61,913 nucleotides of DNA from a virus: IMG/VR virus record IMGVR_UViG_3300048587_000154, positions 1 to 61,913 of that record, one strand, 5' to 3'. The position numbers were made by a program, and so were the translations under genes. The notes beneath the pieces are model-generated. The model saw nothing but the letters and a program-made list of their open reading frames with translations. It made no database searches and was not told the DNA's origin. Shown here piece by piece: positions 1-61,913 of this stretch (position 1 is its first letter; the number at the start of each line of letters is the position of its first letter).

Positions 1-127
1 CATCAAGGTCTAGCACCTTTGCCTCAAGCGCGTTTTCGCCCATCGCCTCCTTCTTGGCGAGGATGGTGTTGTAGGTCTCGGTCAGCGTGTCGAGGAGGTC
101 TTGCTGTTCGGATGGCGTCAGCAACAT
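1..127. repeat. Left copy of the 127-bp terminal overlap
   Basis: Bases 1-127 are identical to bases 61787-61913. The length 127 is a common assembler k-mer size, and the reading frame of the giant minus-strand gene continues exactly across the join. The simplest reading is a circular or circularly permuted genome opened inside that gene, not a true direct terminal repeat. The non-redundant genome is then about 61,786 bp. Confidence 0.9.
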
Positions 128-3100
128 GATGCGCCCGGTCAAGCGCTGCATCGGGTTCTCTGTCGAGACCGCGCCCTTTTCGTTGAAGGCAACCGGCGTG
201 CCAAGGCGATCGTTCAGTTCGGCGTTGTCGCGCGCCCACTGAACGGCGGCAAGATCGCCATATTCGTTCATGAAATCGACGGCATCGGCGGTGAACGCGC
301 TCTTGCGGCTGGCTGTGGTGTTCGCCGACAAGGAGGCCATCTTCTTCATGAGGACGGCGGTTGGTCGCGCCTCTGCCGGGATATCGGCGGAAAGCTGCGT
401 ATAGGCCGGCGCAATCACCTGTCCGGTACGGTGGATGCGGCCAAGCATCTGCATGTGCGTATCAATGTTTCCGTCCGCCTGGGCGATGACCATGCGGCGG
501 CGCGAGCGATCCTTGTACTTGGATGACGCATGCAGCGAAACGCCAGTCGAGCCGGAGCGGTTGAGGATAACGACATCGAGACCGCCGTCGTTGAACTTCT
601 TGATGGTGACGCGCTTGCCCTCTGCGCCCCGCTCGGCGGAAGGCCGCGACGCCAGCGTGCCGGTCTTGTAGTCGATCATGGTCCCGCGCCCGGTGATCTC
701 GGCGACCTTGTGGCCGTCCTTGGTCAGTTCGTGGCGGATGTAGTCGATCGGGGAGGCAGGCAGGCCAGACAGGTCGGCTTCCTCGATCGCGGTTTGCGCG
801 GCCTCGTAGCCGGCCCGAAACTCGCCTGGCAAATCCGTTATCGGGATGAACACATGATCCTTTTCGTCCTCTCCATCCTTGATGGTGATGCGCAGCGTGC
901 GGTCGAGGTAGCGCTGCACCACATCGGCGAAGGTGATGTTGATCGGATCGCCGATCGATAGGCCCTTGTCCGCCGCATAGTCGGAAATGAACGACTCGTT
1001 GGTGAACGAAAGGGTGATGACCGGCTTCTCACCATCCGCCAGCGCCTGCTTGGCGCGCTCCACGGCGGCCTTGGCCTTGATGGAAAGCAACATCTGGTTG
1101 ATGATGTTGTGCATGATCGAGGCAAATTCGGTCGAGTTCGCCGCTAGTTCACCGATGCCGCTATCCATCCCCATAGCCGCGCCGTTTTCCTTAAGCCACG
1201 CCTCGATCCATTCCTTGCGGAAATCCTTGATGGATCGGTCGAAGTCGAAGATTGTCCGAATGGAGTTGGCGAAGTCGGCATAGGCTTCGTAATTGACCTC
1301 TGCAACGTCTAGGTCGTACTCGACACCCTCGAATGAACGCTCGCGCCTGGCGTACTGTCCAGCATCAGCCAGCATCGACGCCACCACCTGTTGCAGCGGC
1401 ACCTTGCCCTTGGTGATGAGTTCGGGGAGGTCTTTCGGATCATTGACCGCCTTGGCCATGTCGGTACGGCTGTACAGGTCCATGACGGTCGGGTTTTTGG
1501 CGTAGGTGGCAGAGGAATACATGACCGCCTTGGCGACTGAAATCCACTGCCGGAACTTCTGCGCACGCGGAACCGGGGCACCCTTGGCGGCGCGCTGCTT
1601 TTCGCCCTGACCGCCCGCATTGTGCGACTCGTCCATGATGAGGAAGGCGCGCGGGGCGATCTGGTTCATGAAGCGACGGCGCGAGGTCTCCAACCCCTTC
1701 ACCGTGTTCATCTGGTCGTAAGTGGTGAAGATCACATCCGGCTTGATCTTGCCAGACAGGATCGCCAGCATTTGTGCGTCCGCGTCCTTCGGCGATTGGG
1801 ACTTGGTGAATTGGCCGCGCTTCTTGGGGGCTTTAACGCCGTCTACCTTGGCCTGATCGCGCTCGATGAGCCAATCGACCGCCTCATCGTCCAGCGGAAC
1901 GGTGGTGTTTGAGTTGGTCATGAAGATGTACGGATCGCGACCAAGCGCCTTCGGCCACTGGATATCATTCAGGTCGCGGTACATGTCGCCGTAGAGGTCG
2001 GGCTTCTCCGTGACGAATACCGGCACCATGCCGCGCTTGTGGGCGAAGCGAATGGCAGCCGCGACGACACGGCCCTTACCGATGCCGGTCTGGTCTCCGA
2101 TGATGAAGGCGTCGCCCTTGGCAACGTTGTCGATCGCCAGCGCGATTGCGTCTATCTGCTCGGCGCTGAACACGTCCTCAAGCTCGGACGTGTCGTAGCC
2201 AAGGCTCTGCGCAACGAAGGCGTCGATGTCGCCGTGGGTCTGCTCGATCTTCGCCAGCGAAGCATCCATCGCCGCGCCAAGGGCGGCGGGAACAAGCGTG
2301 TTGAGCGACTGGCCTTCGCGCGAATAGGGCCGGTACGGCACTTGCCCGGTCGCGTTGGCCTCGCTGGTTACTCTAGCGTCTCGCGGCTTGGCATCAACGC
2401 GCTCACCAGTTCCTCCGGTGTCGTCGCGCCCTGCCAGGCCGCTTCGTCCCTGATCGCCATCCACCAATCCGTCAGGGCTTCGTTGTCCCCGATCATCTGG
2501 AAGGCTGCTTGGCGCGGGCTGGCGTCCGCCGACGGGCGCTGCATCAACAGGCCCTCGGCTTCCATCCTGTCCGCTGCGTCCGCTATCTCCTGCGGGGCGT
2601 TCTTCGACTGCTCCAACAGGGTTCTGAATTTCGCCTCGACCTTCGATAGAAACCGGCTCTCCTCGGTCTGCGGCACTTTCTGAACTACGGCTGCCATCGA
2701 GATATCCTTTCAGCGATGCCCATGAATTAATGTAGGCAGGAACGCGGGCTGCGGGAAGGGGTAGGCTTGATTTGCCCTTTCCGTCGATCACGATCACGTC
2801 AACCGGCCATGCCGCGCCTTGGCGCTGGTACATCTGACCGGACACGGTGAAGTGCTCGATCACGTTGTAGCTGTCGTAGAGGCGCTTGTAGAACTTGCGC
2901 TTTTGCGAGGTGTTGTAGTTGTCGCTGCGCTCGGCCTCTGTGCCATCCTTGACGCTGCCAACGATGAATACGGCTCGACCGTCTGGCGTCATGCCTTCCA
3001 GCGCCTTGAGCACGATCGCCTGATCTATCGCGGTGGTGCGGTGCTGGCCGACCTCGAACACGATCGACTCGCCATTCTTGCGCACGGCACCAAAAGGCGG

Positions 3101-6100
3101 GTTGCCAACGATGCGGTCGGCTCCGTGCGGGGTCTCCATGTCCAGCGCGTCGTTGTCGGTCACGCGGAAGCCCTGATTGCGCAAGGCTGCGGAGCGATCC
3201 TTGTTCAGTTCGTTGGCGTGAACCTGTTGGGTTTCGGGATCGGTGTCGATCAAGAGCGCGCCGTTGCCGGCTGTCGGCTCGTAGATGATCTTACCGCCTG
3301 CGACGTTCGCCAGGCGATCGACCACGTAGGCGAGCGGCATCGGCGTCGAATAGGCCTGCTCTGCGACGCTCTGCGATGTGCGGGTGGCAAGGCGCGGCTG
3401 GCGCTCGTAGAGGCTCACCAAGCGATCGTAGACCACTTCGCTACCGCGCTTCTTGCCGGCCTTGATGATGTCACGGGCAGCCAGCACAACGGCCTGCTCT
3501 ATGACCTCCTCGGCCTCCTTGTTGGCAATCTCCTCCTGCTTGGCCTTCCAGCCGTGATCCGCCAGCCACCTACGGGCCTGATTGATGGTCTCGAAGCGCG
3601 TATCAGGCGAAAGCAGATGGTCGCGAAGTTCTTCGACCACGGAAGCGGGCGTGTTAATTTTTTCGACCTCTTTTGCGGGCGTATTTTTTACCGGCTCGAC
3701 TGGCTTGGCCTCATCCGCGACCAGATAATCCTTGCTGCGGCCTTCCTTGTTGATCTGGATGCCGCCGCCCGGCACAAAGCCAACCGCTTCGGTCACACGC
3801 ACGTTGTTTTCCGTGTAGGACCGAACGCCCTTGTCATCCTCCCACACGGTGTTGCCGCGCGCATTGACGCCGATCTTGGTCCAGCGCCCGCTTTTCGTTG
3901 CCGGCGTCTCTGCCTTCGGCTCCGGTCTGGCCTTCTCGGCTGCGGCCTCGAAGGCGGCATCGGTGTATTCGTGCCCGCCCAACTCCGGCGTCTTTTCCTT
4001 GCCCAAATCGGCATGCAAGCGCGCCGCCTCCTTGGGCGATGTCATGCCGGTCGCATCGAGGCCGGGATAGTTGCGCGCGCCCTCCCAAAAACTCAACAGG
4101 TAGGGATGAATGGCCTTGCCGAAGTCGGCGGTCATAGCCTTGGCGAAATCGGCAAAACTTTTGACGCCAGACTCGATGTAAGCGCCGGCGATGGTCATGC
4201 CATCGACCAGCATTTCCGGGTCGATGCCGCTGTTGAGTTGCGACAGTTTCGAGCGAAGTCGGGCGCGGGCGGCTTCAACCTTGTCGGTGGTGAATATCTT
4301 GTTGCCGGCGAAACGATCGGTTGGCTTCTCCGTGGACTTGGCCTTCACCTGATTGTGCAGGTCCATGAGGTCGGTCTGCCTGGCATCGTCGCCGAACAGC
4401 CCGCCAACGTCCTTTTGCGGCTTGGCGGCCTTGAGCGGGGCATCGGCCTTGCGCTGGGCCATGGTAGCGTCGGAGGCGCGCTCTGCGCCGGGAATGACCG
4501 TCTGCGGCTTACCGTCGGCTCCGGCCTCGGTTTCCGGCTTACGGGCACGCAGCTTCAACAGCGCCAGGCGGGCAGTGCGCTTGTCGAAGGCCATGCCGTC
4601 AACAACGACGCCATCCTTGGAAGTCTGAATGCGGCGCTCGATGGTGGCGATCGCCGCATCGGCATTGCCGTTTTCACCAGCGAGCATGCGCTCGGCCATG
4701 ATTTCGGCCTCGGCGTTGTCGGCGCGCGGGGCTGGCTCGCTGCGGAGCGCGGCTAGTTCTTCGTCGGAGGCGAACGTGTCGCGTGCGCCGCCTTCTGTGC
4801 CCGTTCGAGCGCTTCCGCCGTCTGTTTCTTGGCCTGCACCTTGCGGCCCGCTCTCGCGGCCATCCGGTGCTTGTGCGCGGAAGTCTTGGCGATCTGCTTG
4901 CGCTTCGGATCGGTCGCTGCCTTGGCTTCCTGCTCGCGCTGCCGCGCCGTCCGCAAGTGCTGCTCCGGGGTGTACTTCATCGGACCCTACCTCATCGAAG
5001 AATGGAATAACCGGCGTTGCCTCGGCTTCGGGCTGCGGGTTGTCTGCGTCATAGCCCATCGCATCACGTTCAAGCGCATCGTCCACGCTCATCCCCCCAG
5101 TCATCAGGTCGATGACTTCTGCCATGCCAGCGGCATCGGGATCAATGCCCAATTCACGCAATTCAGCCATCGCGCGTTCGCGGGCGTTGACATGCTGACG
5201 TTCATCGGTGGCGCGGCTCTGATCTTCCCGCCAAGCCTGCGCCCAATCGTCGTCGTTGCGAGAGAACTGGTCGCGGCTGCCAATGTCGGTCGCAAGCGAT
5301 ACCAGCATGTCATCAATGGTCGAGGTGGAAAGCTCGCCATCCTCCGAGTCCTGCAAATAGCCGTTCTCGACCAGAAGCGCGCGGGCCTGATCGAGCGATC
5401 GGCCATTGGCGCGCACCAACTTGCCTACGCCTGGCACAAACACCTTGTCAGCGTCCATGTTGGCAAGCTCGCCCTTGTGATCGCGAACACCACCGCTGGC
5501 CGCAAGAAACTCGACCATCGACTGCGGGCGCTTCACACGGCCCTGTGCGTCTGCCGGCCAGCCTTCTTGCGTGGTTTTGACCTTGCCCATCGCATAGGGC
5601 GTGCGATGCGCCTTTGGCGTGGCGATCCAGTCGCGGAAGGCCTTCGGGGAAACCGACGTGATCGCGCCCACACGCTGGTTTCCCGATCCATCGGAGAACG
5701 CCTTGACGTACAGGTCGCGGGCCTGCGCGATGCTGTCTGCGCCAAGAATGACCTTATGCTCATCGAAGCGCCCGTTTTGCGTCGGCGCACGCTGGTCAAC
5801 GATGTAGATTTTCTTCGATTTCGGGTTGTCGCCCACGTACACATCGACGTGATCGCCGTCCGCGCCCGTGGTTTTCTTGATATACCCGTAATGCGCCGGA
5901 AGGACGGACTCCCATGCCGGCCCGTCGGGGTTCTTGTTGCGGCGCGTCGATCCCTTTGGGTTCTCGATCGTGATGTCTTGCCCGGCGATGCGAACATGCG
6001 CCTTCTTGTAGTTCCCAGCCTGCGCCTGTGCGTCCGACGGCTCGGCAACGCGCTGTCCAGCCGCTTCGAGGTCTTGCGAGGTCTCGATCGATGCCGGGCG

Positions 6101-7696
6101 CGCACGCGATGCGTCGGTCTCAAGCCCGCGTGCAGATGAGAGCGCGGCAGGCTGGGCTTCTTCCGGCTGCTGAATGACGGTCGGAGCCTCAAGGGCGGGT
6201 TCCTGCGCAACAGGCTGGGCTTCCGGTGCAACGGGTGCCGGTTCTTGTGCAACACCGTACTGCGCGGCGATGGCAATCTCGTCTGGCGTGGCTGGGTCGA
6301 TCGCCTGGCTCACCTCTGCGGCGGCTTCTTCCGGTGACATCGAGTCGATATCGGCGTCGGTCCACAGCATCTTGCGAAGCGTGGCACGGACTTCCGGGGG
6401 GACGCTGGTCGAGGGTGTGGCCGGAGGTGGCATGGAAGGCGCAATGGGCACTGCCGCCTCCTGCTCCACCTCCGGCGCGGCGGGAGCGGCGGCTTCTGGC
6501 GATCCGCGCTCAACCGCATCCGGCTCGGTCGAGGTCTCCAATGGCGCTCGCGCGTAACGCTCGGCAGGGTGCGTCACCACCTGCTGATTGTTAGCGTCCG
6601 CCGCACCGCCCTCGCCCTTGCCGAATATCGCGCGTCCGGTCTTGGACACGACTTGCTCGCCCACCTTCAAGCCACCGCCGACGATGCCGCCGATTGCAGC
6701 CGACTCGGCCACGCCATCCATGATGTCTTGATCGGGCTTGTAGACGTAGCGCGCAATGAGGTTCTGCGCCGCCTGCTGAACGGCTTCCTGACCGCCTTCG
6801 GCTGCCGCCTGTGCAAGCACCTTCCCGACGGCTCCGGCCAACTTGCCGGCGAACGGCAGCGGCACGCGCTCGAACAGCGTTTCGATCGGGATTTGCTCTG
6901 TGAGACCGGGATATCGGCCCAACCTGGCCGCTTGGATGATCTGCTCTTGCGTCGCGCCCTTGGAGATAGCGTCATCGATCTGCTGACCGCCCGTCGCCAG
7001 TGAGCCGCCGACAACGCCGGCAACCGGGCCAAGGCCGGGCACCGCGCCAGCCGCCATGAATGGAACGGTCGAGCCAAGCCCTTCCGAGATCGACCGCGAC
7101 CAAGTGTTCTCATAGTCCTCGGCTGCCGGGAAGTTCTCGGCGGCATAGTCCTGCATCGCCTGCCCTGCTTTGAACAGGGATGTGTCCTGAATTTTCTCCT
7201 CCGGCATGATGTCGGCGTTTTCGCCGAGTCCTGCCAGCGCCTTCACGCCACCATCGACCGTGAGCGTTCCGTTTCGCACCTGCGAAGCGACGGCCAGAAG
7301 AACGATTTCCTTCAAGCCGCGAATGCCCTTGTTGGCCTTGCGCTGCCAGTCCACCCATTCCGTGTTCGTCATGAGCGGGATGCGCTCGAAGTCGGTTACC
7401 AAGCTCTTGACGGCTTCGCGCTCTGCCGGCGAATTGGCCTGTTCCGGGGCAAGACCCTTGACCATGGAGCCGATGGCGTTGATCGCTCCGGCTGCGATGC
7501 CCTTGCCAACTTCGGGGAAGAACGATCCGCCTTCCTCCTCGGCGATCGGCTGGGCCGGCTTTACGCTCGGCGCGGCGTATTTCGCCCATGGGCCTGCGGC
7601 CTTTGCGCCGGGCGTCGGCGACGGGCTGGGCGTAACTGCATCGACCGTAGGGGCTGCATACTTCTCCCACGGGCCACGGATCGCGTTTTCAGCCAT
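1..7696 (-). CDS. Giant polyvalent protein, residues 1 to about 2565 (InPase-like, N6-adenine methyltransferase, SBNO-type helicase)
   Basis: The ATG at 7696 directly follows the TAA of the upstream gene. The frame stays open past base 1 and resumes at 61786, ending at 56316: 4,388 residues in all. The N-terminus has two PWxKYAAP motifs (about residues 9 and 36), then Gly/Ala-rich hydrophobic stretches (about 210-310). Residues 555-690 resemble the inorganic-pyrophosphatase-like domain of phage polyvalent proteins (ENPKGS, PAHYGYI, GADGDHVDVYVG). A methyltransferase has EPTAGNGAL near 1473 and NPPF at 1532-1535. A Strawberry-notch/SF2 helicase has GDQTGIGKG near 1867, DESH at 2022 and MLGRIHRTGQ at 2417. 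Between domains lie long Gly/Ser/Asp/Arg-rich linkers, two of which contain nested genes. By family precedent (N4-type virion giants, DarB-like proteins) it is probably packaged and ejected to protect or modify incoming DNA; that role is inference. Confidence 0.93.
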   Translation of the reverse strand, partial: MAENAIRGPWEKYAAPTVDAVTPSPSPTPGAKAAGPWAKYAAPSVKPAQPIAEEEGGSFFPEVGKGIAAGAINAIGSMVKGLAPEQANSPAEREAVKSLVTDFERIPLMTNTEWVDWQRKANKGIRGLKEIVLLAVASQVRNGTLTVDGGVKALAGLGENADIMPEEKIQDTSLFKAGQAMQDYAAENFPAAEDYENTWSRSISEGLGSTVPFMAAGAVPGLGPVAGVVGGSLATGGQQIDDAISKGATQEQIIQAARLGRYPGLTEQIPIETLFERVPLPFAGKLAGAVGKVLAQAAAEGGQEAVQQAAQNLIARYVYKPDQDIMDGVAESAAIGGIVGGGLKVGEQVVSKTGRAIFGKGEGGAADANNQQVVTHPAERYARAPLETSTEPDAVERGSPEAAAPAAPEVEQEAAVPIAPSMPPPATPSTSVPPEVRATLRKMLWTDADIDSMSPEEAAAEVSQAIDPATPDEIAIAAQYGVAQEPAPVAPEAQPVAQEPALEAPTVIQQPEEAQPAALSSARGLETDASRARPASIETSQDLEAAGQRVAEPSDAQAQAGNYKKAHVRIAGQDITIENPKGSTRRNKNPDGPAWESVLPAHYGYIKKTTGADGDHVDVYVGDNPKSKKIYIVDQRAPTQNGRFDEHKVILGADSIAQARDLYVKAFSDGSGNQRVGAITSVSPKAFRDWIATPKAHRTPYAMGKVKTTQEGWPADAQGRVKRPQSMVEFLAASGGVRDHKGELANMDADKVFVPGVGKLVRANGRSLDQARALLVENGYLQDSEDGELSTSTIDDMLVSLATDIGSRDQFSRNDDDWAQAWREDQSRATDERQHVNARERAMAELRELGIDPDAAGMAEVIDLMTGGMSVDDALERDAMGYDADNPQPEAEATPVIPFFDEVGSDEVHPGAALADGAAARAGSQGSDRSEAQADRQDFRAQAPDGRESGPQGAGQETDGGSARTGTEGGARDTFASDEELAALRSEPAPRADNAEAEIMAERMLAGENGNADAAIATIERRIQTSKDGVVVDGMAFDKRTARLALLKLRARKPETEAGADGKPQTVIPGAERASDATMAQRKADAPLKAAKPQKDVGGLFGDDARQTDLMDLHNQVKAKSTEKPTDRFAGNKIFTTDKVEAARARLRSKLSQLNSGIDPEMLVDGMTIAGAYIESGVKSFADFAKAMTADFGKAIHPYLLSFWEGARNYPGLDATGMTSPKEAARLHADLGKEKTPELGGHEYTDAAFEAAAEKARPEPKAETPATKSGRWTKIGVNARGNTVWEDDKGVRSYTENNVRVTEAVGFVPGGGIQINKEGRSKDYLVADEAKPVEPVKNTPAKEVEKINTPASVVEELRDHLLSPDTRFETINQARRWLADHGWKAKQEEIANKEAEEVIEQAVVLAARDIIKAGKKRGSEVVYDRLVSLYERQPRLATRTSQSVAEQAYSTPMPLAYVVDRLANVAGGKIIYEPTAGNGALLIDTDPETQQVHANELNKDRSAALRNQGFRVTDNDALDMETPHGADRIVGNPPFGAVRKNGESIVFEVGQHRTTAIDQAIVLKALEGMTPDGRAVFIVGSVKDGTEAERSDNYNTSQKRKFYKRLYDSYNVIEHFTVSGQMYQRQGAAWPVDVIVIDGKGKSSLPLPAARVPAYINSWASLKGYLDGSRSSESAADRGEPVSIEGRGEIQNPVGAVEERPAGDSGRSGQDGSRGPVDAAPVGGRQPAPSSLPDDRGQRSPDGLVDGDQGRSGLAGRDDTGGTGERVDAKPRDARVTSEANATGQVPYRPYSREGQSLNTLVPAALGAAMDASLAKIEQTHGDIDAFVAQSLGYDTSELEDVFSAEQIDAIALAIDNVAKGDAFIIGDQTGIGKGRVVAAAIRFAHKRGMVPVFVTEKPDLYGDMYRDLNDIQWPKALGRDPYIFMTNSNTTVPLDDEAVDWLIERDQAKVDGVKAPKKRGQFTKSQSPKDADAQMLAILSGKIKPDVIFTTYDQMNTVKGLETSRRRFMNQIAPRAFLIMDESHNAGGQGEKQRAAKGAPVPRAQKFRQWISVAKAVMYSSATYAKNPTVMDLYSRTDMAKAVNDPKDLPELITKGKVPLQQVVASMLADAGQYARRERSFEGVEYDLDVAEVNYEAYADFANSIRTIFDFDRSIKDFRKEWIEAWLKENGAAMGMDSGIGELAANSTEFASIMHNIINQMLLSIKAKAAVERAKQALADGEKPVITLSFTNESFISDYAADKGLSIGDPINITFADVVQRYLDRTLRITIKDGEDEKDHVFIPITDLPGEFRAGYEAAQTAIEEADLSGLPASPIDYIRHELTKDGHKVAEITGRGTMIDYKTGTLASRPSAERGAEGKRVTIKKFNDGGLDVVILNRSGSTGVSLHASSKYKDRSRRRMVIAQADGNIDTHMQMLGRIHRTGQVIAPAYTQLSADIPAEARPTAVLMKKMASLSANTTASRKSAFTADAVDFMNEYGDLAAVQWARDNAELNDRLGTPVAFNEKGAVSTENPMQRLTGRIMLLTPSEQQDLLDTLTETYNTILAKKEAMGENALEAKVLDLD
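2368..2697 (-). CDS. Nested out-of-frame gene inside the giant gene, 109 aa
   Basis: The ATG at 2697 follows GAAAGGATATCTCG, a good Shine-Dalgarno at proper spacing, and opens 109 codons in a different frame from the surrounding giant gene. The product has normal protein composition (Leu, Ile, Phe, Met, Trp spread through it; ends TPEELVSALMPSRETLE). I translated the giant frame across the same bases and it stays open but is Gly/Arg/Ser/Asp/Pro-rich linker. It sits between the methyltransferase and helicase domains. No family recognised; it looks soluble and helical. It is either a real overlapping gene or the relic of one engulfed by gene fusion. Confidence 0.6.
   Translation of the reverse strand: MAAVVQKVPQTEESRFLSKVEAKFRTLLEQSKNAPQEIADAADRMEAEGLLMQRPSADASPRQAAFQMIGDNEALTDWWMAIRDEAAWQGATTPEELVSALMPSRETLE
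4753..4980 (-). CDS. Nested out-of-frame gene inside the giant gene, 75 aa basic protein
   Basis: The ATG at 4980 is preceded by GAGGTAGGGTCCG, giving a GAGG-type ribosome binding site. The 75-residue product begins MKYTPEQHLRTARQRE and is helical, Lys/Arg/Gln/Ala-rich. It resembles the small 'PEQHLRxA...A.TDP..R' proteins common in alphaproteobacteria; that likeness is from memory. The giant frame is also open here (checked codon by codon, 4742-4980) but reads as low-complexity Gly/Ala/Ser/Asp/Arg linker. This is the second such nested gene in a linker of the same protein. Confidence 0.55.
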   Translation of the reverse strand: MKYTPEQHLRTARQREQEAKAATDPKRKQIAKTSAHKHRMAARAGRKVQAKKQTAEALERAQKAAHATRSPPTKN

Positions 7697-26491: not shown

Positions 26492-29400
26492 CTAGTCCAC
26501 GGTTGCAGGGGTTTCCGGCACTTCGTCATTGGTCGAGGCCGGAAGCGCTTCGATGTCGTAGATGCGCGACGTGGCGTCCACCAAGTCATCCCGCGTGCCG
26601 AACGGGAAATACAGCATTTCCTCCATAAGAGCGCGGGTCAGGTCGTACACCTTGTCCAACTCATCCTTGCGCATGAGCGGCTTGGCATTCAGGTACTCTT
26701 GCCCGCGATCCTTCGCCATCTTCTGCACCTTCAACTCGCCGTCGAGGGGAGTGAAGCTCATGTAGCCCTTCTCGATGTCAGGCTCCCACAGGCAGGTTTT
26801 GCCGTTCGCGTAGACCAAGCCGGGGAAAAAGAAGGTCGAGTATTGCACGTCCGGTTGCAGGCGCTCGACACGATCGCGTTTCGAGTTGCCGCCCTCGCGC
26901 GGCCATGCAAGCTCATGAATGGCGAAGTTGTACTTCTCGGCGCGCATGCGCTCTTGGAAATACTCATCGTCCGATTGCTGGCCGAAGCGCTCGTATCCGA
27001 CCTTCACCAGCATGACGCCCGGCATCTTCGACCATTTCTTGTGGTAGTGCTTCAACTGGTCCCAGCGCTGCGAGAGCTTCATGCGGTGCCTGGCACCGTC
27101 GAGGAAGTATTTGTTGCCCTGCGCATCCACGCCAATGACCGCGATGGCCGTGTTGTCGGACTTGGCCGTGCGCCCGCGCGAAGGATCGGCGAGGATATAC
27201 ACGTTCAGCGCGGCAGGCCGAACGAACCACGGTTTCATCCATTCGGCATGGAACGTCTTTGCCGTGCCGCCCAGCGGGTTTTGAAGCATCTGCGCGTTGA
27301 CGGTCGATAGCTGCTTGACCTTGGCCTTGTCCCATTGCGCTTGCGTCATCATGACCGGCTTGCCGTCCAGCTTGCCATTGTGCGTTGCCGGGTAAAGGCG
27401 CGGCTTGACGATCCCGCGCCCGATCAGGTCGCCATAGGTGTCAGCAAAACTATTCGAGGAGCAAAAGCCCTCAACCACGTAGTTGCCTGTTTCCGTCTCA
27501 AGCCAATGCACGTCGGCAACACCGGCAGCCTCGACCTTGCTTAGCTTGATGCGCCTTGTGGTCAATTGGCCGTACAATGTCTGTGCCAGCTTCTCAAAGC
27601 GTGCCGGGGCGATCTGCGCGAGGAAGCGATAGCGCTCTCGCCATCCTCCGTTGATGAGGAACACACAGCGGTCGTTCCAATGCTTGGCGCTCGGCTTGTG
27701 CCACGCCTCCGACCACTCGAAGCCCAGTTCCGACAAGACGCGGCGGGTTTCGTTGATCAATTCCGGGTGCGCCATCGTTTGCGTGATGGTGACCGCTCCG
27801 CTTGGGTGGTGTTTGTTCTTCTTGATGCTGCCTTCGCCGTCGAAGAAGCCGGCCAGCCAGCCGGCATCGCGGCCTTGATCCTCCTCGATCGGATCAACCA
27901 GTTCGCGCAATGCGATGAGCCTGCCGTCGCATTTCTTGTTGAGGAATGCTCGATCCTTCCTGACGTGCGCAGAAAGGCCGAGCGGAGCGTATTCCGGGCC
28001 ACCGCCATGCGGCCCGCGCCACCATTTGTGATCATCCGTGCAAACGACGGAACGGCCATTGTCCAGATGGTAGCGGTTGACCGCCTGGCAGAAGTGAACG
28101 CCACGGTTCACAACCTTCGCAGGGCGCAGCCAGCGCTTGCCGTCTCGAAGCTCCCAGCCAACGACTGTATCGCCTATGCGAACGTCTGCGATCGGCTTGT
28201 GCGACCAATCTCCCATCAAGATGCGCTGGTCGCCGCGCGTGCAATAGCGCGTGCCCACCATCCATTCCCGGCCCTCTGCGGTGCCAAGGTTGGTCGATAG
28301 CTCGTAGCTCGATGTGGTCTTTGCCACCTGCTCCGGGGTCGTCACCGACTCGCGCGTCACCATGTCGTCGTAGTTGCGCAGCGCAAAGTGCTTCGATGTC
28401 GGTTGCCCATCGACCACGCCCCAGCCTTCAACCGTGGCTTCCTTGGGGTTGCCCTTGCGCCGGATCGTGAAAGCCTGCTCCGACCAGATGGGAGCCTCGC
28501 CCTTGGGCTTCATCCAGCAGATGTCCGGGTAGATCATCCGCATTTCCGATGTCTCGAACTCGCGCCTGATCTGCGCGACGAACTTCTTTGCGATGGCTGC
28601 CGTGTGGGCAAAGATGCCGATCGTTATCTCCGGGTCATTGATGATTTCCTGCACACACCCGGCAAGCGTGATGATGGTCGAGTTGTGGGTGGTAATGTGC
28701 TGGCGACCGGTAAGGTATAGGCCATCGGTGCGCGCCACCTGAATACACCGCACCGGGACGCTGGCTACCGGCTCAACGCTGATGATGGCGTGTCGCCCGG
28801 AGCGTGTGCGTTTGGCATTCGACGCCCGCGCCTGTTTTCTTGGCAGGTGAAACACGGCTGGACCGTCGGCCTGCACTTGGAAGCTCACCTGATAGTACGG
28901 GTAGTCATCGCCCTTATATTGCCCAACTGGGCGACGGATCGACGGCTTGAGGCCGAGACCGGCAGCTAGGTCGAATACGTCATTTGCGAGCCGTTCCGTC
29001 GCATTGCAAAATGTCGCCGTTCCCCGTCCATCGCAGTGGCCGTCCGTGTCCATGAGACCGCGCAACAACTCCCAACGATCCTCTATCGATGCGCATTGGT
29101 AGGGGCCTGGGATGTGCTTGTTGGTGAACGTTCCCGCCTCACGAAGAAGGGCCGCAAGACCATAGATGCCGACCGCAATACCCCTGCCGCGCCGACGACG
29201 GGTCCGGTGCCCAAGCGCCTCGATCCTTTCGATGATCGCGTTGTCGAAAGGATCGTTGGCTATAGCCGCCGCGCCGCGCGCTCCATCCCCAAGCCATGCG
29301 CCGAGCACATAGGGATGGAGCGGCAATGGCGATGATGATGCGCCAAAGTCCAGCGCAGCAGCCACGGGTACGCTAGGCCACACCGCGCCCTTGATGAGCC

Positions 29401-30010
29401 GCGCATGATCGACCTTCTTCATCAGCGTCCGCGTATCGATAGTAACCCTGGCTCGACCGGCTCTCTTGTTGCCGCTCACCCGCGCGCGGTTGGCGATGTC
29501 CACTGTCCACAGGTGATCGCCGCTGCACACGATGCTCTCACCCTTGTCGAAGGTCACGCGGTAGCAGTCGGCGTCGGTGAAGATCGGCGTTTGGGCCACA
29601 ATGCGGGTTGGCTTCCCGTCGGGGCCGAACACCTCATCGCCAACCTTGAGGTCGCCGAAAGGTCGCCATCCGAGCGGTGTTATCGTCGGTGTTTCAAGAC
29701 ATTCGGCTTTGTAATGGTAGCGCGCCCATAGGTCCAAGTGGCCGTCGGGATCGCCCTCGACCTCGCGGCAGCGATCGTAGAGCCATGGGTGGAAGGCGTC
29801 TGTGCGCGCCAAGATGTTTGTCAGCAGGAAATATCGATCGACCGCGCCGAGGTAGGCGATATCCCCGATCGCGCCCACCTCGGCAATTTGTGTGTAGAAG
29901 TCCACGGCCTCCATGAAATCCATGGCGTGCAGTTCGCCAATCTCGGCATAGCGCACAAGATCGGGGCTGGCGGATGCACGGTACAGGGTGCCTTGGTACT
30001 TCTCGAACAT
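26492..30010 (-). CDS. terL: Large terminase subunit interrupted by two inteins
   Basis: The ATG at 30010 (MFEKYQGTLYR) gives 1,172 residues. Removing two in-frame inteins (residues 104-443 and 590-853) leaves 568, a normal TerL size. The mature ATPase has the P-loop region RYHYK...STIITLAG, rebuilt only after intein 1 leaves, and NYDDMVT as a Walker-B-like site. GTRY|SFADTYGD is the coupling region, rebuilt after intein 2 leaves. The nuclease half has ILADPSRG and DDLVDATSRI acidic residues. No clear Shine-Dalgarno; the start is 10 bp after the upstream stop, so reinitiation is likely. The upstream extension to 30154 is Arg/Ser-rich and not natural. It packages DNA through the portal. Confidence 0.93.
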   Translation of the reverse strand: MFEKYQGTLYRASASPDLVRYAEIGELHAMDFMEAVDFYTQIAEVGAIGDIAYLGAVDRYFLLTNILARTDAFHPWLYDRCREVEGDPDGHLDLWARYHYKAECLETPTITPLGWRPFGDLKVGDEVFGPDGKPTRIVAQTPIFTDADCYRVTFDKGESIVCSGDHLWTVDIANRARVSGNKRAGRARVTIDTRTLMKKVDHARLIKGAVWPSVPVAAALDFGASSSPLPLHPYVLGAWLGDGARGAAAIANDPFDNAIIERIEALGHRTRRRRGRGIAVGIYGLAALLREAGTFTNKHIPGPYQCASIEDRWELLRGLMDTDGHCDGRGTATFCNATERLANDVFDLAAGLGLKPSIRRPVGQYKGDDYPYYQVSFQVQADGPAVFHLPRKQARASNAKRTRSGRHAIISVEPVASVPVRCIQVARTDGLYLTGRQHITTHNSTIITLAGCVQEIINDPEITIGIFAHTAAIAKKFVAQIRREFETSEMRMIYPDICWMKPKGEAPIWSEQAFTIRRKGNPKEATVEGWGVVDGQPTSKHFALRNYDDMVTRESVTTPEQVAKTTSSYELSTNLGTAEGREWMVGTRYCTRGDQRILMGDWSHKPIADVRIGDTVVGWELRDGKRWLRPAKVVNRGVHFCQAVNRYHLDNGRSVVCTDDHKWWRGPHGGGPEYAPLGLSAHVRKDRAFLNKKCDGRLIALRELVDPIEEDQGRDAGWLAGFFDGEGSIKKNKHHPSGAVTITQTMAHPELINETRRVLSELGFEWSEAWHKPSAKHWNDRCVFLINGGWRERYRFLAQIAPARFEKLAQTLYGQLTTRRIKLSKVEAAGVADVHWLETETGNYVVEGFCSSNSFADTYGDLIGRGIVKPRLYPATHNGKLDGKPVMMTQAQWDKAKVKQLSTVNAQMLQNPLGGTAKTFHAEWMKPWFVRPAALNVYILADPSRGRTAKSDNTAIAVIGVDAQGNKYFLDGARHRMKLSQRWDQLKHYHKKWSKMPGVMLVKVGYERFGQQSDDEYFQERMRAEKYNFAIHELAWPREGGNSKRDRVERLQPDVQYSTFFFPGLVYANGKTCLWEPDIEKGYMSFTPLDGELKVQKMAKDRGQEYLNAKPLMRKDELDKVYDLTRALMEEMLYFPFGTRDDLVDATSRIYDIEALPASTNDEVPETPATVD
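27452..28243 (-). mobile_element. Intein 2 of the large terminase (264 aa, LAGLIDADG type)
   Basis: Begins at Cys (CTRGDQRILMGDWSHKPIAD) after GTRY and ends VVEGFCSSN before Ser of SFADTYGD. Block-A-like and block-B-like (SVVCTDDHKWW) motifs are present. A homing-endonuclease motif, WLAGFFDGEGSI, lies in the middle. The penultimate residue is Ser rather than the usual His, so splicing may use a variant branch-resolution step. It interrupts the coupling motif after the ATPase. Confidence 0.88.
28682..29701 (-). mobile_element. Intein 1 of the large terminase (340 aa, LAGLIDADG type)
   Basis: Begins Cys (CLETPTITPLGWRPFGDLKV) and ends ITTHN before Ser of STIITLAG, the classic Cys1 ... His-Asn | Ser+1 layout. 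The block-B-like motif GESIVCSGDHLW is present. Two LAGLIDADG-type helices, YVLGAWLGDG and LLRGLMDTDG, mark a homing endonuclease. It sits inside the P-loop, so unspliced terminase should be inactive. Confidence 0.92.
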
Positions 30011-30020
30011 CGCGTCGCGT

Positions 30021-56022: not shown

Positions 56023-56322
56023 ATGTTGAAATTTGCCGCCGCATTCTATGCGTTGTTCGTTTGTAGTGCGACCGCCTGCGATATCTTTACTGGGGAAGGC
56101 TCCGAGTTCGTCCCCGGAGCAACGCTTACATGGCATCCCGACGGGATATTCACACTCGCCGACTCGGATGGGTCGAAGGACTATGTTTTCCAGTCCACGG
56201 GAATGACTGATGTTCCCTACTCCATGGGCGTCTCGACCAAGGATAAAAACGATGTCGTCTTGATCCGCGAGCTTGATGGCAAGTGGATCATCGACATGGT
56301 GGTTTTCACCTGCGCTCATTGA
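56023..56322 (+). CDS. Secreted small protein on the plus strand, 99 aa
   Basis: A strong GGAGGAA precedes the ATG. MLKFAAAFYALFVCSATACD is a signal peptide (cleavage near ATA/C, or lipidation at C19). The mature part is a beta-rich domain (GATLTWHPDGIFTLADSDGS, DVVLIRELDGKWIIDMVVF) with two further Cys. It is transcribed against both neighbours and overlaps the end of the giant gene by 7 bp. It may be a lysogenic-conversion or superinfection-exclusion gene; inference. Confidence 0.78.
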   Translation: MLKFAAAFYALFVCSATACDIFTGEGSEFVPGATLTWHPDGIFTLADSDGSKDYVFQSTGMTDVPYSMGVSTKDKNDVVLIRELDGKWIIDMVVFTCAH

Positions 56323-59300
56323 CGGCTGGCCTTGACGTAGGCCTTGCGCGCCTCGCGCATGGCGTCCAACTCGGCCTTTTCCAGTTCATCAAGCCGCTTC
56401 TTCTTCTGCGCCGCCGCCATGCTGTCGTCAGCTTCGAGTCGGCGGCGCTCTTTGTTCAGTGCCTTGCGCTGCTTTTCTGCCGCCTTGAACGCACCTGCCG
56501 CCTCAAGCTCTGCCGTGTGCGACTTCCGATAGGCATCTGCCTTTGCCGTCTGGCCGCTCTCGTTGTAGGTTTTCAGATACCCCTCTGACGCCATGACGGC
56601 CTCGCGCTCGCGGTAGTATTCGGTGCGCTGCGAATTTTCATCAATCTCGCCATAGAAGTTGCGCACCCACGGCGTCTTGCCCGGCTCAAACTCGCCCACA
56701 AGCGCGTTTTCCGCCGTCTGCTCGACACCAGTAACGAAGCGGCCAAGCCCGCCGACGAAGTATCCCCACAGATGCTCCAACGTGTCGGGGTGGATATCGA
56801 CCGCGCCTGGCACCACCTCATCACCGCCGCTTGTCCAGTTGATGAGTTCGGCCAACTTCCTGAATGCCGGGTGCGTGGTCGAGAACGCTTGCGAGCTTTC
56901 CGGCGCTGGCGATCGATCGAACGGATTGCTGTCCGGGTAGATCGGTGATCCCGCGAAGTTCTCGTTGCTGATGATATCAACAGCGGGATCGCCAATAGTC
57001 GGCGTCACCATGGAAGCCATGGAGCCGGAGCCGATCGGGTTGAAGGCGTCGAAAGCAACGCGGATCGCTGACAAGATGCCCGTCATCGGGTCTTGCGCGC
57101 CCGAAGCGATGGCCGCGCCCTGCAAGCCCAAGTGATGGAAGGCGTTGTAGCCATAGGCCATCGGGAACGAAACGTATTTCTCGGTGCCGGGGATGAAGAA
57201 CACATACTGGCGTTCGAGCTTGTAAGGCTCGTTTTTCAGCATCTTCTCATAGTACGACTCGCCGTCGTCATCCGTGCCGGAAAACAGCATGTTCCAAACG
57301 TGCTGCATCATCCCGCCAAATATGAACGTGGCGATCGCCGCGCGCACCGCCTTTGAGCGCACCGCCCTCGATCCGACGTTGTAAGCGCCCTGCGCAGCCG
57401 CGTTGAAGAACACGAACCATGCGTTCATCGCCGGGCCAAGCTCGCCATGCTTCTTGAAGTCCACGGTCAGGTCGCGCGCCATGAACGCGGCTTCCTTGGC
57501 CGTGCGGCCCTGAATGTTGCGGGCTGCCGCATAAGAGGCCAGGCGGATGCCGTTTTCGCCAGCATCGTTCAAATCGCCAACGAATTTGGTGACGGCGCGG
57601 TACGCCGCTTTCATGGGCGTGACGCCGTTGACGGCCTCGGTCATCTGCTTTTGCAGCTTGTGCAGGTTTTCTTCCAGCGTGGCGTAACCGTGGAACGTGA
57701 TCTTGCCGCCTGCCTCGACATACTCTGCGGCCATCTTGTCCCAAACACCGTCGCCAGCCTTCTTGCGCGACAAACGCCACAATGCGCCCATCGCCTGCGG
57801 GATGTTCTTCGTGATGGTGGCGATCTGCTTGACCGAAAAGCCTTCGTCCAGCAGGTGCGTTGTGCCTGTCTGAATGTCCCTGATGATGTTGATCGGGGTG
57901 AAGGCCGGGTTGGCGCGGGTGTTGACGATCGACTGCCACACGGTAAGCGGGCGCACGATCTTGGAGAGTGTTCCCAGTTCGGCCATACCCATCTTGCGCA
58001 GCGCGAGGCCGATCTTCGGATCGCGGAAGCGGATATAGAACGTCCGTCCGCCCACCTTCGCGGCCAACACGTCATCAAGGTTCGAGAACGGGTTGGGCAC
58101 GCGGCGATAGGTGACAAGACCATCCTTGCCGATCACGCGCTTGAACACGTCCGGGGCTTTGGTGATGTCGCCAAGGAACTTGTCATCGCCCGACCAGTAG
58201 ACTTGCGCGATATGCTCGCCTTCCGGGTCGAACTCGTTGATGAAGCGCGCCATGGCCTTGCCGACGGCGTTCTTGTGCTGGCGCAAGATCGATTGCTCGT
58301 TTTGCGTGATCGCATGCGCAAGGATGTTCTCGGCCTCGGAAAAGCGGCCCATGGCAACCTTGAACTCATCACCGCGCACATCGAAGCCGCCAGCGCCGTG
58401 ATTGTGCCAGAAGCCGTCCGATGTCATGCCCTCCATGCCCTTGAGGGGCACGTAGTTCTTCCACTGCGTCGTCAATAGGTCGAAGGTCTCGGCGCTGATG
58501 AGACCGGCCTTGCGCTGGTTCTTCAATTCGGCATCGATCATTTCCCTGATGGAGCCGGCAGCGATGCGCAAGGCGCGGTGCTTTTCCGGGTCGCTGCGGG
58601 CGTCCGCGATGATTTCGCGCACCTGATCGATTGACATGCCGGAAGCGCCGACAACCGACGAGTCGAAGATCGCCCGGTAGAACTGGCTTTCCTGCGGGTG
58701 GCGCATGCCGACGACGCGGTTCCGCTCCTCGGCGTGCAGGGCGTAGAGGTACTTGTGCAAATCCTCCAAGCTCGCGCCACCATCCGCCAGCGCTTTCACT
58801 GCCGGCGCGACATAGGTGTCGTGCATGCGCTCGATCTGCGGCAGCGCCCGATCTTCCATCAGGCGGGCGTTCAGATAGGCGTCGTTCAACTCGGACAGCT
58901 TGTAGCCGCCGCGCTCCTGCATCATGCGCAGCGGGTGAAGATAGTCGATCCACTTGCGGGTCAGGTAATCGCCAAAGCTCTCGCCGTCATCCTTGTGACT
59001 GCGATCCTTGGTCGTTGATATGCCCTTGAGCGTGGCCGTAGTGTTGCGAAGCATTTTGGCAATGCGCTGGCCCACCAATGCGCCAGGCGCTTTGCTCGGC
59101 TCGATCTTCGGCGGCACAAACTCGGCCTTGTCTGGCATCTGCATTTCTGCGGTGATGGAAATACGGTTATCGTCATAGATGACGTAATTGTACGTGCCCT
59201 TGCCGTCTGAACGCGATCCCCGATCGAGATAACGATGGCCGGGGATGCCAGCCGCACGCAAAGCTTCGGATGCGGCGCGATCGTTTGGAACAGTCTCACG

Positions 59301-61913
59301 CGGATTAACCCTTGCCATCAACGATCCGGCAGGAGGGGGGGAGCCAAGATCAACGGTCAAATACTTGTAGAGGCTGGAGAAGGAAACATCCCCCAGCGAT
59401 CCAGACGAAAGCAAATTCGACACGTTGGTTCCGAGTGATTTCAATTTCTCCACAAGGGCGGGTGGCTGCTCGGACATTTTCTTGTCCCAGTCCAGCAATT
59501 CATGATCTTCGGGGAGGTTGACGGTATAGAGCTTGCCGAAGGTCTTGACCTCTCCCTTGCTCCACTCGCGCAACAGCGCTGCGGCGGCACGCAACGTCTT
59601 GAAGTCTCCCCAGCCGGCTTCCTTCTGGAATGATGTCAATTCGCCCGGCGAAAGCTCTGCCGACCTCGCTTGGTTTTCCACCCAGCGCGCCTTGTCGGTC
59701 AGGCTCATCCCGCTATCAAGCGCCTGACGGGCGAAGATCGCGGCTCGTTCCTCGGCATTGGTGTTGGCGATGTCTTTACTGCCAACAGCAATTCGTTTGC
59801 CGTTTACCTCTATCGAAGCATGGCGCGATGCCAGCGTGTCGCGGTAATACTCTGCGACATCGCGCCGGCCAGCGAAGTAGAGACCCCAGCCGAACGACTG
59901 GTTGCCCTCACCTGTACCGATCTTGTCGGTCGAGAAACGGCCAACCTTGTGCGGCGTGCCGTGGTAAGCCGGCTGATAATCGAAATCGCTGTCACGGATC
60001 GGGTTCACAGGCCGGGTTTTCATTTCGCCGCTGCGCGCCTTGTCGAAGATATCTTCGGCGGTGCGGTAGCCGTGACCGGCAAGCAGGTTCTTGGCGCGGC
60101 GGATCGCTGCCCTGATCTTGTCCCACACCCTGCGAAGCCCGATGTGCAGGCCGCGAACTTCGCGATTGTCATCCATGCGGGTCGAGTAGATGGCGAACGC
60201 CTCGGCCTCCAATTCCTTTTGGCTCATCTTTTCCGGGCGGCGGAACGGGTTCGAGGCGACCAACTCGCGCAGGCGGGCGTTCTCGCGCTGCAACAGGAAG
60301 CGCTCGTCCTTGGTCAAGAACAGCGATTGCAGCCGGTGGAAGGCCTCATGATAGGCGGTGCTGTCGTTGAACGTGTCCAGCGCCAGCGCAATGATGTCAA
60401 TCGCCGGATCGTAATAGCCCGCCGCGTTCCTTGGTCCGTCATCCAGATGCGCGCCCCACGCCTTAAGCGCCGGATGATCTGCCGGGATGGGGATCACGTC
60501 ATGCAATTGCGTCTTGATGCCAGCCACACGGGAGACGATTTCAAGCGCCTTGTGAACCTCGGCTTGCGTCCTGACGATTGGCTCCGGCCCGCGATCCGAA
60601 ACGACGGTGCCGTTCGGCTCCTGCCGGATCGACATTTGCCGGGTGTCCTTCTTCGGAAAGACGATCGACTGGGCAAGCTCGGCCTCACCCGGAGCGACCC
60701 AGCGCACGCCAGCGGTTTGCAGGGCTGCGAGGAGCTTCTTGGCGGTGTCGGCGTTGACCGTCGCCTCCATCTGCCCAAAGCGCTCTGTCCATAGGTCGTA
60801 GACCTTGCGCACGGCGTCGTCTGTGACCAGCTTCTTCGCCTTACGGGAAACGCTAAATTCGAAGCCCCTGTAGGTGTTCTCGACTCTCACCGTATCCTTG
60901 TCGTTGACAAGCGTCTTTTCCTCCGACTCGGCAAGGAAGCGCATGGCCTGATCGGCGTTCTGGAAGCGAATGCGCCGCTCGCGCTGCCAATCTCCCAAGT
61001 CGAACACGCGCGGCATGAGAATGCCGGGCTTGATGTTGCCCTGCTTGTCGGTGAACTGGATGATCTGGCCCTTGCCGTTCAGCCCGTCGAAGGCTGCCAA
61101 CAGATTGCCCGTGGCGATGAAACGCTCGGAACGGCCCTCGGTCGCGGCTTTGGTGAACATAGGCTCCAAGGCTTCGAGCTTGTCGTTCCATCCAGCGCCG
61201 CGAAACTGGGTGATGGCTCCGGCGTCCTCGCCTTCCTTCGGCTTTTCGAACGTGATCTGCGAGAATGGCAGAATGATCGTGCGCGAGGAGTCGGGGATCG
61301 CGATTTCAACCGACCATGAGGAGAGCGCCGTCGGGGATTTGGCCTTCTTGCTGGCGCGGATATCCAGCACGATTGCCGGCATTTCCGTATCCCCCACCAA
61401 GATCACCTGCTTGCCGATCGACATCGACCGGATGATGTTCGACCACTTCTGCAACTGCTCACGCGCCTTTGTCTGCGCGTTTTCCTTCGCCTTCGGGTCT
61501 TTGAGGCTGTCCACGGTCCACTTCGCCCAAGCCTCATGCTCGGTGCGCATGCGCTCGATGGTGCGTTCGGCCTTGATTGCGCCGATCCGCTCCAACTGGC
61601 GAAGCGCCTGCGGGAAGTTCCATGTGTCGGGGCGATGACCAAGCGAGTCGGCAACGCGATCCACCACATCACGCGGCTTCATGGCGAGGCCGACGGACTT
61701 GACCGACATACGCTCCATGTTGGCCGAAGCCTCGAACGGCGACGGGCCGAGCGACGGCTTGATTTCGGTCGATCCCAAGCTTTCGGCATCAAGGTCTAGC
61801 ACCTTTGCCTCAAGCGCGTTTTCGCCCATCGCCTCCTTCTTGGCGAGGATGGTGTTGTAGGTCTCGGTCAGCGTGTCGAGGAGGTCTTGCTGTTCGGATG
61901 GCGTCAGCAACAT
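56316..61913 (-). CDS. Giant polyvalent protein, residues about 2524 to 4388 (zincin, ART-like, LPD38-like)
   Basis: Continuation of the gene that starts at 7696. The frame enters from base 1/61786 without a break; the apparent start at 61913 is only the window end. After the helicase C-terminal region, YHEAFHRLQSL places the HExxH zincin at residues 3045-3049. YHGTPHKVGRF (3173) and GQSFGWGLYFAG-like sequence near 3197 match ADP-ribosyltransferase domains of polyvalent proteins. The last 900 residues (MMQERGGYKLSELND..., NPAFTPINIIRDIQTG, FNAAAQGAYNVGSRAV, GYNAFHHLGLQG) fit the LPD38 C-terminus. A charged coiled coil ends it. It would act in the new host cell. Confidence 0.93.
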   Translation of the reverse strand: MLLTPSEQQDLLDTLTETYNTILAKKEAMGENALEAKVLDLDAESLGSTEIKPSLGPSPFEASANMERMSVKSVGLAMKPRDVVDRVADSLGHRPDTWNFPQALRQLERIGAIKAERTIERMRTEHEAWAKWTVDSLKDPKAKENAQTKAREQLQKWSNIIRSMSIGKQVILVGDTEMPAIVLDIRASKKAKSPTALSSWSVEIAIPDSSRTIILPFSQITFEKPKEGEDAGAITQFRGAGWNDKLEALEPMFTKAATEGRSERFIATGNLLAAFDGLNGKGQIIQFTDKQGNIKPGILMPRVFDLGDWQRERRIRFQNADQAMRFLAESEEKTLVNDKDTVRVENTYRGFEFSVSRKAKKLVTDDAVRKVYDLWTERFGQMEATVNADTAKKLLAALQTAGVRWVAPGEAELAQSIVFPKKDTRQMSIRQEPNGTVVSDRGPEPIVRTQAEVHKALEIVSRVAGIKTQLHDVIPIPADHPALKAWGAHLDDGPRNAAGYYDPAIDIIALALDTFNDSTAYHEAFHRLQSLFLTKDERFLLQRENARLRELVASNPFRRPEKMSQKELEAEAFAIYSTRMDDNREVRGLHIGLRRVWDKIRAAIRRAKNLLAGHGYRTAEDIFDKARSGEMKTRPVNPIRDSDFDYQPAYHGTPHKVGRFSTDKIGTGEGNQSFGWGLYFAGRRDVAEYYRDTLASRHASIEVNGKRIAVGSKDIANTNAEERAAIFARQALDSGMSLTDKARWVENQARSAELSPGELTSFQKEAGWGDFKTLRAAAALLREWSKGEVKTFGKLYTVNLPEDHELLDWDKKMSEQPPALVEKLKSLGTNVSNLLSSGSLGDVSFSSLYKYLTVDLGSPPPAGSLMARVNPRETVPNDRAASEALRAAGIPGHRYLDRGSRSDGKGTYNYVIYDDNRISITAEMQMPDKAEFVPPKIEPSKAPGALVGQRIAKMLRNTTATLKGISTTKDRSHKDDGESFGDYLTRKWIDYLHPLRMMQERGGYKLSELNDAYLNARLMEDRALPQIERMHDTYVAPAVKALADGGASLEDLHKYLYALHAEERNRVVGMRHPQESQFYRAIFDSSVVGASGMSIDQVREIIADARSDPEKHRALRIAAGSIREMIDAELKNQRKAGLISAETFDLLTTQWKNYVPLKGMEGMTSDGFWHNHGAGGFDVRGDEFKVAMGRFSEAENILAHAITQNEQSILRQHKNAVGKAMARFINEFDPEGEHIAQVYWSGDDKFLGDITKAPDVFKRVIGKDGLVTYRRVPNPFSNLDDVLAAKVGGRTFYIRFRDPKIGLALRKMGMAELGTLSKIVRPLTVWQSIVNTRANPAFTPINIIRDIQTGTTHLLDEGFSVKQIATITKNIPQAMGALWRLSRKKAGDGVWDKMAAEYVEAGGKITFHGYATLEENLHKLQKQMTEAVNGVTPMKAAYRAVTKFVGDLNDAGENGIRLASYAAARNIQGRTAKEAAFMARDLTVDFKKHGELGPAMNAWFVFFNAAAQGAYNVGSRAVRSKAVRAAIATFIFGGMMQHVWNMLFSGTDDDGESYYEKMLKNEPYKLERQYVFFIPGTEKYVSFPMAYGYNAFHHLGLQGAAIASGAQDPMTGILSAIRVAFDAFNPIGSGSMASMVTPTIGDPAVDIISNENFAGSPIYPDSNPFDRSPAPESSQAFSTTHPAFRKLAELINWTSGGDEVVPGAVDIHPDTLEHLWGYFVGGLGRFVTGVEQTAENALVGEFEPGKTPWVRNFYGEIDENSQRTEYYREREAVMASEGYLKTYNESGQTAKADAYRKSHTAELEAAGAFKAAEKQRKALNKERRRLEADDSMAAAQKKKRLDELEKAELDAMREARKAYVKASRQ
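61787..61913. repeat. Right copy of the 127-bp terminal overlap
   Basis: Identical to bases 1-127. See the left copy. Confidence 0.9.

What the first reader, a model, noticed from the sequence alone, without database searches (positions are those of the whole stretch)
4753..4980. A second nested gene in another linker of the same giant protein
The 75-aa basic product follows a GAGG ribosome binding site and resembles stand-alone small alphaproteobacterial proteins, while the giant frame here is Gly/Ala/Ser/Asp-rich filler. Two independent cases in linkers of one protein suggest that swallowing small genes is a route by which polyvalent proteins grow.
Basis: partly seen in the sequence, partly recalled or inferred. 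Interest (0 to 1): 0.8.

Follow-up and report, generated by a model that had tools for sequence, protein, structure and literature searches.

The report
Conserved small gene inside giant gene
A phage gene for a giant multi-part protein carries, hidden in another reading frame of one of its linkers, a small gene for a helical basic protein that other phages and prophages keep at the same place.

Summary
The ORF exists as described (minus strand, 4980 to 4753, 75 aa, +1 to the giant frame, GAGGT 8 nt before the ATG). Its length is unremarkable; its codon usage and conservation are not. Codon statistics switch frame exactly at the ATG. Homologues lie at the same spot, always +1, in 15 other fetched loci (14 recovered by held-out profiles, one resting on codon usage and position). 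Against Pseudohoeflea the nested protein is 56% identical, the giant frame there 31%; shuffling synonymous codons with the giant protein fixed never reproduces this (0 of 20,000). The enclosing frame looks like filler but stays open in all 16 loci. So this is very probably a real, independently started gene, a conserved passenger of a polyvalent-protein module. No free-standing homologue was found: "swallowed from a stand-alone gene" is unproven, and the cases at this linker share one origin. Codon usage favours the small gene as the older frame. A helical hairpin is predicted; the function is unknown, and a helper of the giant is my guess.

The parts
4753..4980 (-). nested ORF, 75 aa, ATG start, TAG stop, +1 frame of the giant; predicted helix 5-21, turn, helix 25-69
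4989..4993 (-). Shine-Dalgarno-like GAGGT, 8 nt before the ATG
4987..4989 (-). TAG in the nested frame, two codons before the ATG (closes the nested frame upstream)
4757..4979 (-). giant-frame linker (filler) overlapped by the nested ORF; atypical codon usage, low conservation, kept open
4982..5524 (-). giant residues 725-905: conserved domain (GGVRD..GEL .. IPFF) directly upstream of the nested ORF
2..7696 (-). 5' part of the giant polyvalent protein gene (InPase 555-691, N6-MTase-like 1448-1579, AAA_34 1840-2135, Helicase_C_4 2329-2554); runs on at 61913
56316..61913 (-). 3' part of the same giant gene, continuing through the 127-bp terminal repeat
2368..2697 (-). the first nested ORF (109 aa), +1 frame, methylase-helicase linker; homologue nested in the same way in L033

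Best explanation
A genuine overlapping gene. A small basic two-helix protein is translated by internal initiation (own SD and start codon) from the message of a giant polyvalent phage protein, in the +1 frame, entirely inside a linker. Selection keeps the nested protein's sequence; in the enclosing frame it keeps little more than an open, flexible linker. The nested gene is a fixed part of a module (upstream GGVRD..GEL..IPFF domain plus linker) found in giants and mid-size proteins of several phages and prophages. Shown by computation: frame, start, codon usage, cross-phage conservation, dual constraint. Inferred: that the protein is made; that it works together with the neighbouring domain or the giant (for example as a co-made assembly, packaging or nucleic-acid-binding helper), because it was found only beside that domain (this functional step about 0.4). 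Origin, inferred: the small gene is the older frame and the giant frame was extended through it (about 0.45).
For: Codon-usage frame switch starting exactly at the ATG. Nested codon score above every other +1 window of its own giant in 12 of 16 loci, and above the enclosing frame in 14 of 16. Window against L058: nested identity 56%, giant frame 31%; 0 of 20,000 synonymous shuffles with the giant protein fixed reach the nested score, whereas with the nested protein fixed the giant score is reached by 1,860 of 20,000. In 18 locus pairs the nested score lies 3.1 to 12.5 SD above the null; 0 of 2,000 shuffles reach it in 17 pairs, 1 of 2,000 in one. L088 against L091: 30/12/40 differences at nested codon positions 1/2/3, so the giant's third positions change least. 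Held-out profiles: the expected ORF is the top six-frame hit of its own locus in 15 of 16 loci. SD match of 4 bases or more in 16 of 16. An in-frame stop directly before the start or two codons before it in 4 of 16 (window, L087, L088, L089). Giant frame open in 16 of 16 with P 0.008-0.50 each, third frame closed in 16 of 16. AlphaFold2 hairpin, mean pLDDT 88.4.
Against: No expression data. No stand-alone homologue and no known family: Pfam, NCBIfam, PHROGs and PDB gave only weak or no hits. L090 is not recovered by the held-out profile; L079 (E 0.034) and L112 (0.018) are weak. In L061 codon usage does not favour the nested frame, and the window+L058 profile alone does not find it. Start codons in L061, L090, L092, L093, L095, L096 and L098 were chosen partly by their SD, so 16 of 16 is generous. 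Control windows reach z 8.2 (L092-L093) and 6.7 (L061-L093), and L088-L089 is too close to discriminate. Of 25 loci brought in by the upstream domain, 13 show no recognisable nested ORF; 9 of those 13 match the domain only up to residue 113 of 181 or less. The functional step is a guess.
Confidence: 0.86

Rival explanations
1. Chance open frame: in a GC-rich gene out-of-frame ORFs are common, and this one means nothing.
For: Seven ATG ORFs of 75 aa or more lie out of frame on the same strand in this giant; no stand-alone homologue.
Against: Codon-usage switch, conservation beyond what the giant frame imposes, held-out recovery in 15 of 16 loci.
Confidence: 0.03
2. Programmed +1 frameshift: ribosomes leave the giant frame at the linker, and the nested frame is the C-terminal tail of a shortened giant, not a separate protein.
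For: Always +1 and always just after the same domain; the nested frame is open upstream of the start in 12 of 16 loci.
Against: A stop lies two codons before the start (window) or directly before it (L087, L088, L089); no shared slippery string was seen by eye; a start with SD is present in all 16.
Confidence: 0.07
3. Overprinting: the small gene arose de novo inside an existing linker of the giant; nothing was swallowed. (A rival to the origin step only, not to the gene being real.)
For: No free-standing relative in any collection searched; the +1 frame is the commoner one for de novo internal overlaps (passage of PMC8227390).
Against: Codon usage is closer to the genome in the nested frame than in the enclosing one in 14 of 16 loci, which under the criterion described in PMC8227390 marks the enclosing frame as the newer; the same source says old de novo genes can acquire typical codon usage, so this is not decisive.
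Confidence: 0.4
4. The constraint is on the RNA or DNA (a structure or signal), not on a protein.
For: Not tested by RNA folding here.
Against: Codon-position pattern 30/12/40, conservative replacements at protein level, SD plus start plus stop, and a coherent helical hairpin prediction.
Confidence: 0.03

Closest known systems
Same-strand overlapping (overprinted) genes of viruses
   Same: Two proteins from one stretch of DNA, +1 internal overlap, internal initiation inferred; a review of such genes was seen in passages (PMC8227390).
   Different: Here the enclosing frame, not the nested one, looks like the newer or filler frame, and the host is a polyvalent phage giant. A family kept at one spot in proteins of very different size was not met in the passages read.
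Hepatitis B virus P/S overlap, as described in PMC8227390
   Different: Another virus class; the resemblance is in the proposed history, not in sequence.
Polyvalent proteins and DarB-like methylase-helicase giants (PMC5512222)
   Same: The window's giant has InPase, N6-MTase-like and Strawberry-notch-type helicase parts and matches a PHROG called DarB-like antirestriction.
   Different: In that paper the words overlapping, frameshift and linker do not occur, and the two uses of nested concern a beta-hairpin (passages only).

Membership tests
Overlapping protein-coding gene (same strand, nested) | Both frames open over the overlap | tested here: met
   (16 of 16 loci)
Overlapping protein-coding gene (same strand, nested) | Selection on the nested protein beyond what the other frame imposes | tested here: met
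   (18 pairs)
Overlapping protein-coding gene (same strand, nested) | Own translation start | tested here: met
   sequence level only: start and SD in 16 of 16, some starts chosen partly by SD
Overlapping protein-coding gene (same strand, nested) | Protein detected | not testable with these tools
   no expression data
Swallowed stand-alone gene | Free-standing homologue exists | tested here: not met
   none in phages or plasmids, viral contigs, genome contigs (the only hit is itself nested), 396 other genomes of the order and 384 others of the class (four weak hits at E 0.003-0.008, ignored); the searches are limited for so short a protein
Swallowed stand-alone gene | Non-fused gene order in some relative | tested here: not met
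   0 of 16 loci with the nested ORF; L061 shows a frame break just after the linker relative to L092, read as a frameshift, not as an unfused state
Swallowed stand-alone gene | Nested frame has the more genome-like codon usage | tested here: met
   14 of 16 loci; old de novo genes can show this too
DarB-like / polyvalent giant (host gene) | Several conflict-type domains in one ORF incl. methylase and Strawberry-notch helicase | tested here: met
   (the N6_Mtase Pfam hit is just under its cut-off, 19.4 against 20.4 bits)

The most novel reading that the evidence does not exclude
Polyvalent phage giants grow by running their reading frame through small genes that once lay between domain genes: the small gene stays functional and becomes nested, and its out-of-frame translation becomes the linker. 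The window's giant carries two such marks of fusion that are still live genes, and linkers of other giants could be searched for more.
Probability: 0.45. Interest if true: 0.85.

Novelty: new variant of a known kind. Interest (0 to 1): 0.74.

Why it matters
It gives a conserved, fully nested, same-strand gene family in phages that ordinary gene calling would tend to miss, with constraint visible in both frames. It turns the question of where the linkers of giant polyvalent proteins come from into something that can be tested: scan their linkers for frame switches in codon usage. It also hands the experimenter a concrete microprotein, with predicted start sites in many phages, whose role beside a virion-type giant is unknown.

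Tried and rejected
Stand-alone relatives: tblastn of the nested protein in phages and plasmids (one plasmid hit at E 0.2 inside an annotated ABC-transporter gene, ignored), of two other members in phages (only E 0.9 hits in one phage), pattern scans, genome scan, profiles in 397 and 385 genomes (weak hits at E 0.003-0.008 ignored). PHROG 1545 matched two or three members weakly (E 0.006) but rings in 4 of 14 control genomes, and its other place in one prophage is no clear small gene: dropped. An L071 hit (E 6e-4, 29 residues) was taken as a chance helix match. All-frames BLAST between giants without composition correction was uninformative: out-of-frame translations of biased composition match everywhere. 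Foldseek against PDB: no match at E 0.001 or better, only generic helices. Scans that brought nothing for this question: 14, 15, 45, 52, 87. MT835618.1 (L114) carries the upstream domain, but the family profile finds no nested ORF in it.

Papers: searches (listings only); passages read in PMC5512222 and PMC8227390. None of those listed was seen to report this nested gene; the library is open-access only, so absence there is weak.

Full report
WHAT IS THERE. The ORF is on the minus strand, 4980 to 4753, 75 codons, in the +1 frame of a giant ORF that runs 7696 to 2. The contig carries an exact 127-bp terminal repeat, and the ORF 61913-56316 begins with the last 42 residues of the first piece, so the giant continues across the contig ends and has about 4,390 residues. 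Pfam finds InPase, an N6-methylase-like stretch just under its cut-off, AAA_34 and Helicase_C_4; PHROGs calls it DarB-like. The nested ORF follows directly on a conserved domain (giant residues 725-905, ending in IPFF). It has GAGGT 8 nt before the ATG and a TAG two codons before the ATG.

IS IT MORE THAN CHANCE. By length, no: seven ATG ORFs of at least 75 aa lie out of frame on this strand in the giant. By codon usage, yes. With a codon model trained on 14 other long ORFs of the window, the nested frame scores 0.43 bits per codon and the giant frame in the same place -0.09. The strongest frame-switch segments over 15 long ORFs are 2709-2371 (the first nested ORF), then 30152-30024 (where ORF 30021-30998 overlaps the start of a longer ORF, so probably a start taken too far upstream), then 4980-4804, which begins exactly at the ATG.

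RELATIVES. The genome scan gave one relative, in Pseudohoeflea sp. (L058), and it is also nested, +1, at the same place of a homologous 3,466-aa giant. In the ungapped overlap the nested proteins are 56% identical (66 codons), the giant frames 31% (65 codons); differences by nested codon position are 20/20/32. With the giant protein of L058 held fixed and synonymous codons redrawn, the nested score (181) was never reached in 20,000 trials (mean 35.5, SD 15.6, max 105). With the nested protein held fixed, the giant score was reached in 1,860 of 20,000, and three quarters of those trials had a stop in the giant frame.

The upstream domain and the giant's N-terminal part then brought in more loci. 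Of ten loci, L079 carries the nested ORF. Of 25 viral loci (one, L103, the same contig as L079), 12 carry it (L086-L093, L095, L096, L098, L103; L090 by codon usage and position only) and 13 do not visibly; 9 of these 13 match the domain only up to residue 113 of 181 or less. Of the ten matches, L058's genome and L061 carry it; of the three, L058's genome and L112 do. In all, 16 loci including the window were used: W, L058, L061, L079, L086-L093, L095, L096, L098, L112. L088 and L089 are near-identical there and L091 is close to them; L095, L096 and L098 are close to each other; one search treats them as 12 groups.

TESTS ON THE 16. Profiles built without the locus and its near relatives rank the expected ORF first among that locus's six-frame fragments in 15 of 16; L090 fails, L079 (E 0.034) and L112 (E 0.018) are weak. 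The pairwise shuffling test over 18 pairs gives z 3.1 to 12.5, with 0 of 2,000 in 17 pairs and 1 of 2,000 in one (L086-L112). Control windows have mean z of -0.6 to 2.5 except L088-L089 (8.0, too close); single controls reach 8.2 (L092-L093) and 6.7 (L061-L093), unexplained; several pairs had only 1 to 4 control windows. The nested codon score exceeds all other +1 windows of the same giant in 12 of 16, and the enclosing frame in 14 of 16 (not L061, L079). A start with an SD match of at least 4 bases is present in 16 of 16; other out-of-frame starts of the same giants reach the same length in 0 to 28%, with the caveat that some nested starts were chosen partly by SD. The giant frame is open in 16 of 16 although the nested proteins, with random synonymous codons, would leave it open with P 0.008 to 0.504; the third frame is closed in 16 of 16. 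So both frames are constrained: the nested one in sequence, the giant one in staying open.

THE OTHER NESTED ORF. P0005 (2697-2368, 109 aa) also has a homologue nested +1 in the methylase-helicase linker of L033: 61 ungapped codons, nested identity 34%, giant 31%, z 6.8, 0 of 5,000; codon score in L033 0.55 nested, -0.17 giant. It was found in that one relative only, and no ATG with a good SD was seen near the aligned start in L033.

MECHANISM. Best reading: internal initiation on the giant's message makes a separate basic two-helix protein (AlphaFold2 on 13 sequences: helices 5-21 and 25-69, mean pLDDT 88.4). A frameshift product is unlikely, since in 4 of 16 loci a stop lies directly before, or two codons before, the start. 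What the protein does is not known; because it was found only beside this domain, I guess a partner of the giant. Origin: the codon-usage criterion described in PMC8227390 (passages) makes the enclosing frame the newer one, which favours extension of the giant through an older small gene; that review also reports that old de novo genes gain typical codon usage. The cases at this linker share one origin, because the module carries the nested gene; they are not repeated swallowings.

KNOWN OR NEW. Overlapping genes in viruses are a known kind. In the polyvalent-protein paper PMC5512222 the words overlapping, frameshift and linker do not occur (passages only). My paper searches (listings) showed none that reports this gene.

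Noticed in passing
window 1-127 and 61787-61913: Exact 127-bp terminal direct repeat: the contig, classed linear, looks like a complete permuted phage genome, and the giant gene spans its ends.
   Followed up: yes
window 2368-2697 (-): The first nested ORF is conserved, nested and +1 in L033, between methylase and helicase; homologue seen in one locus only.
   Followed up: partly
L061 about 2190-2260: Relative to L092 the giant frame of L061 breaks just after the linker; the downstream conserved part continues in the nested ORF's frame. Real frameshift or sequencing error.
   Followed up: partly
L092/L093 and L061/L093, outside the nested region: Control windows with +1 conservation z of 8.2 and 6.7: possibly another overlap in these mid-size proteins.
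   Followed up: no
window 30016-30152 (-): Strong frame switch at the 5' end of ORF 26492-30154: its TTG start is probably too far upstream, overlapping ORF 30021-30998.
   Followed up: no
L075 (IMGVR_UViG_3300048588_000147, 4559 bp): Encodes giant residues 1-486 at 100% identity: a second record of the same or a nearly identical phage.
   Followed up: no
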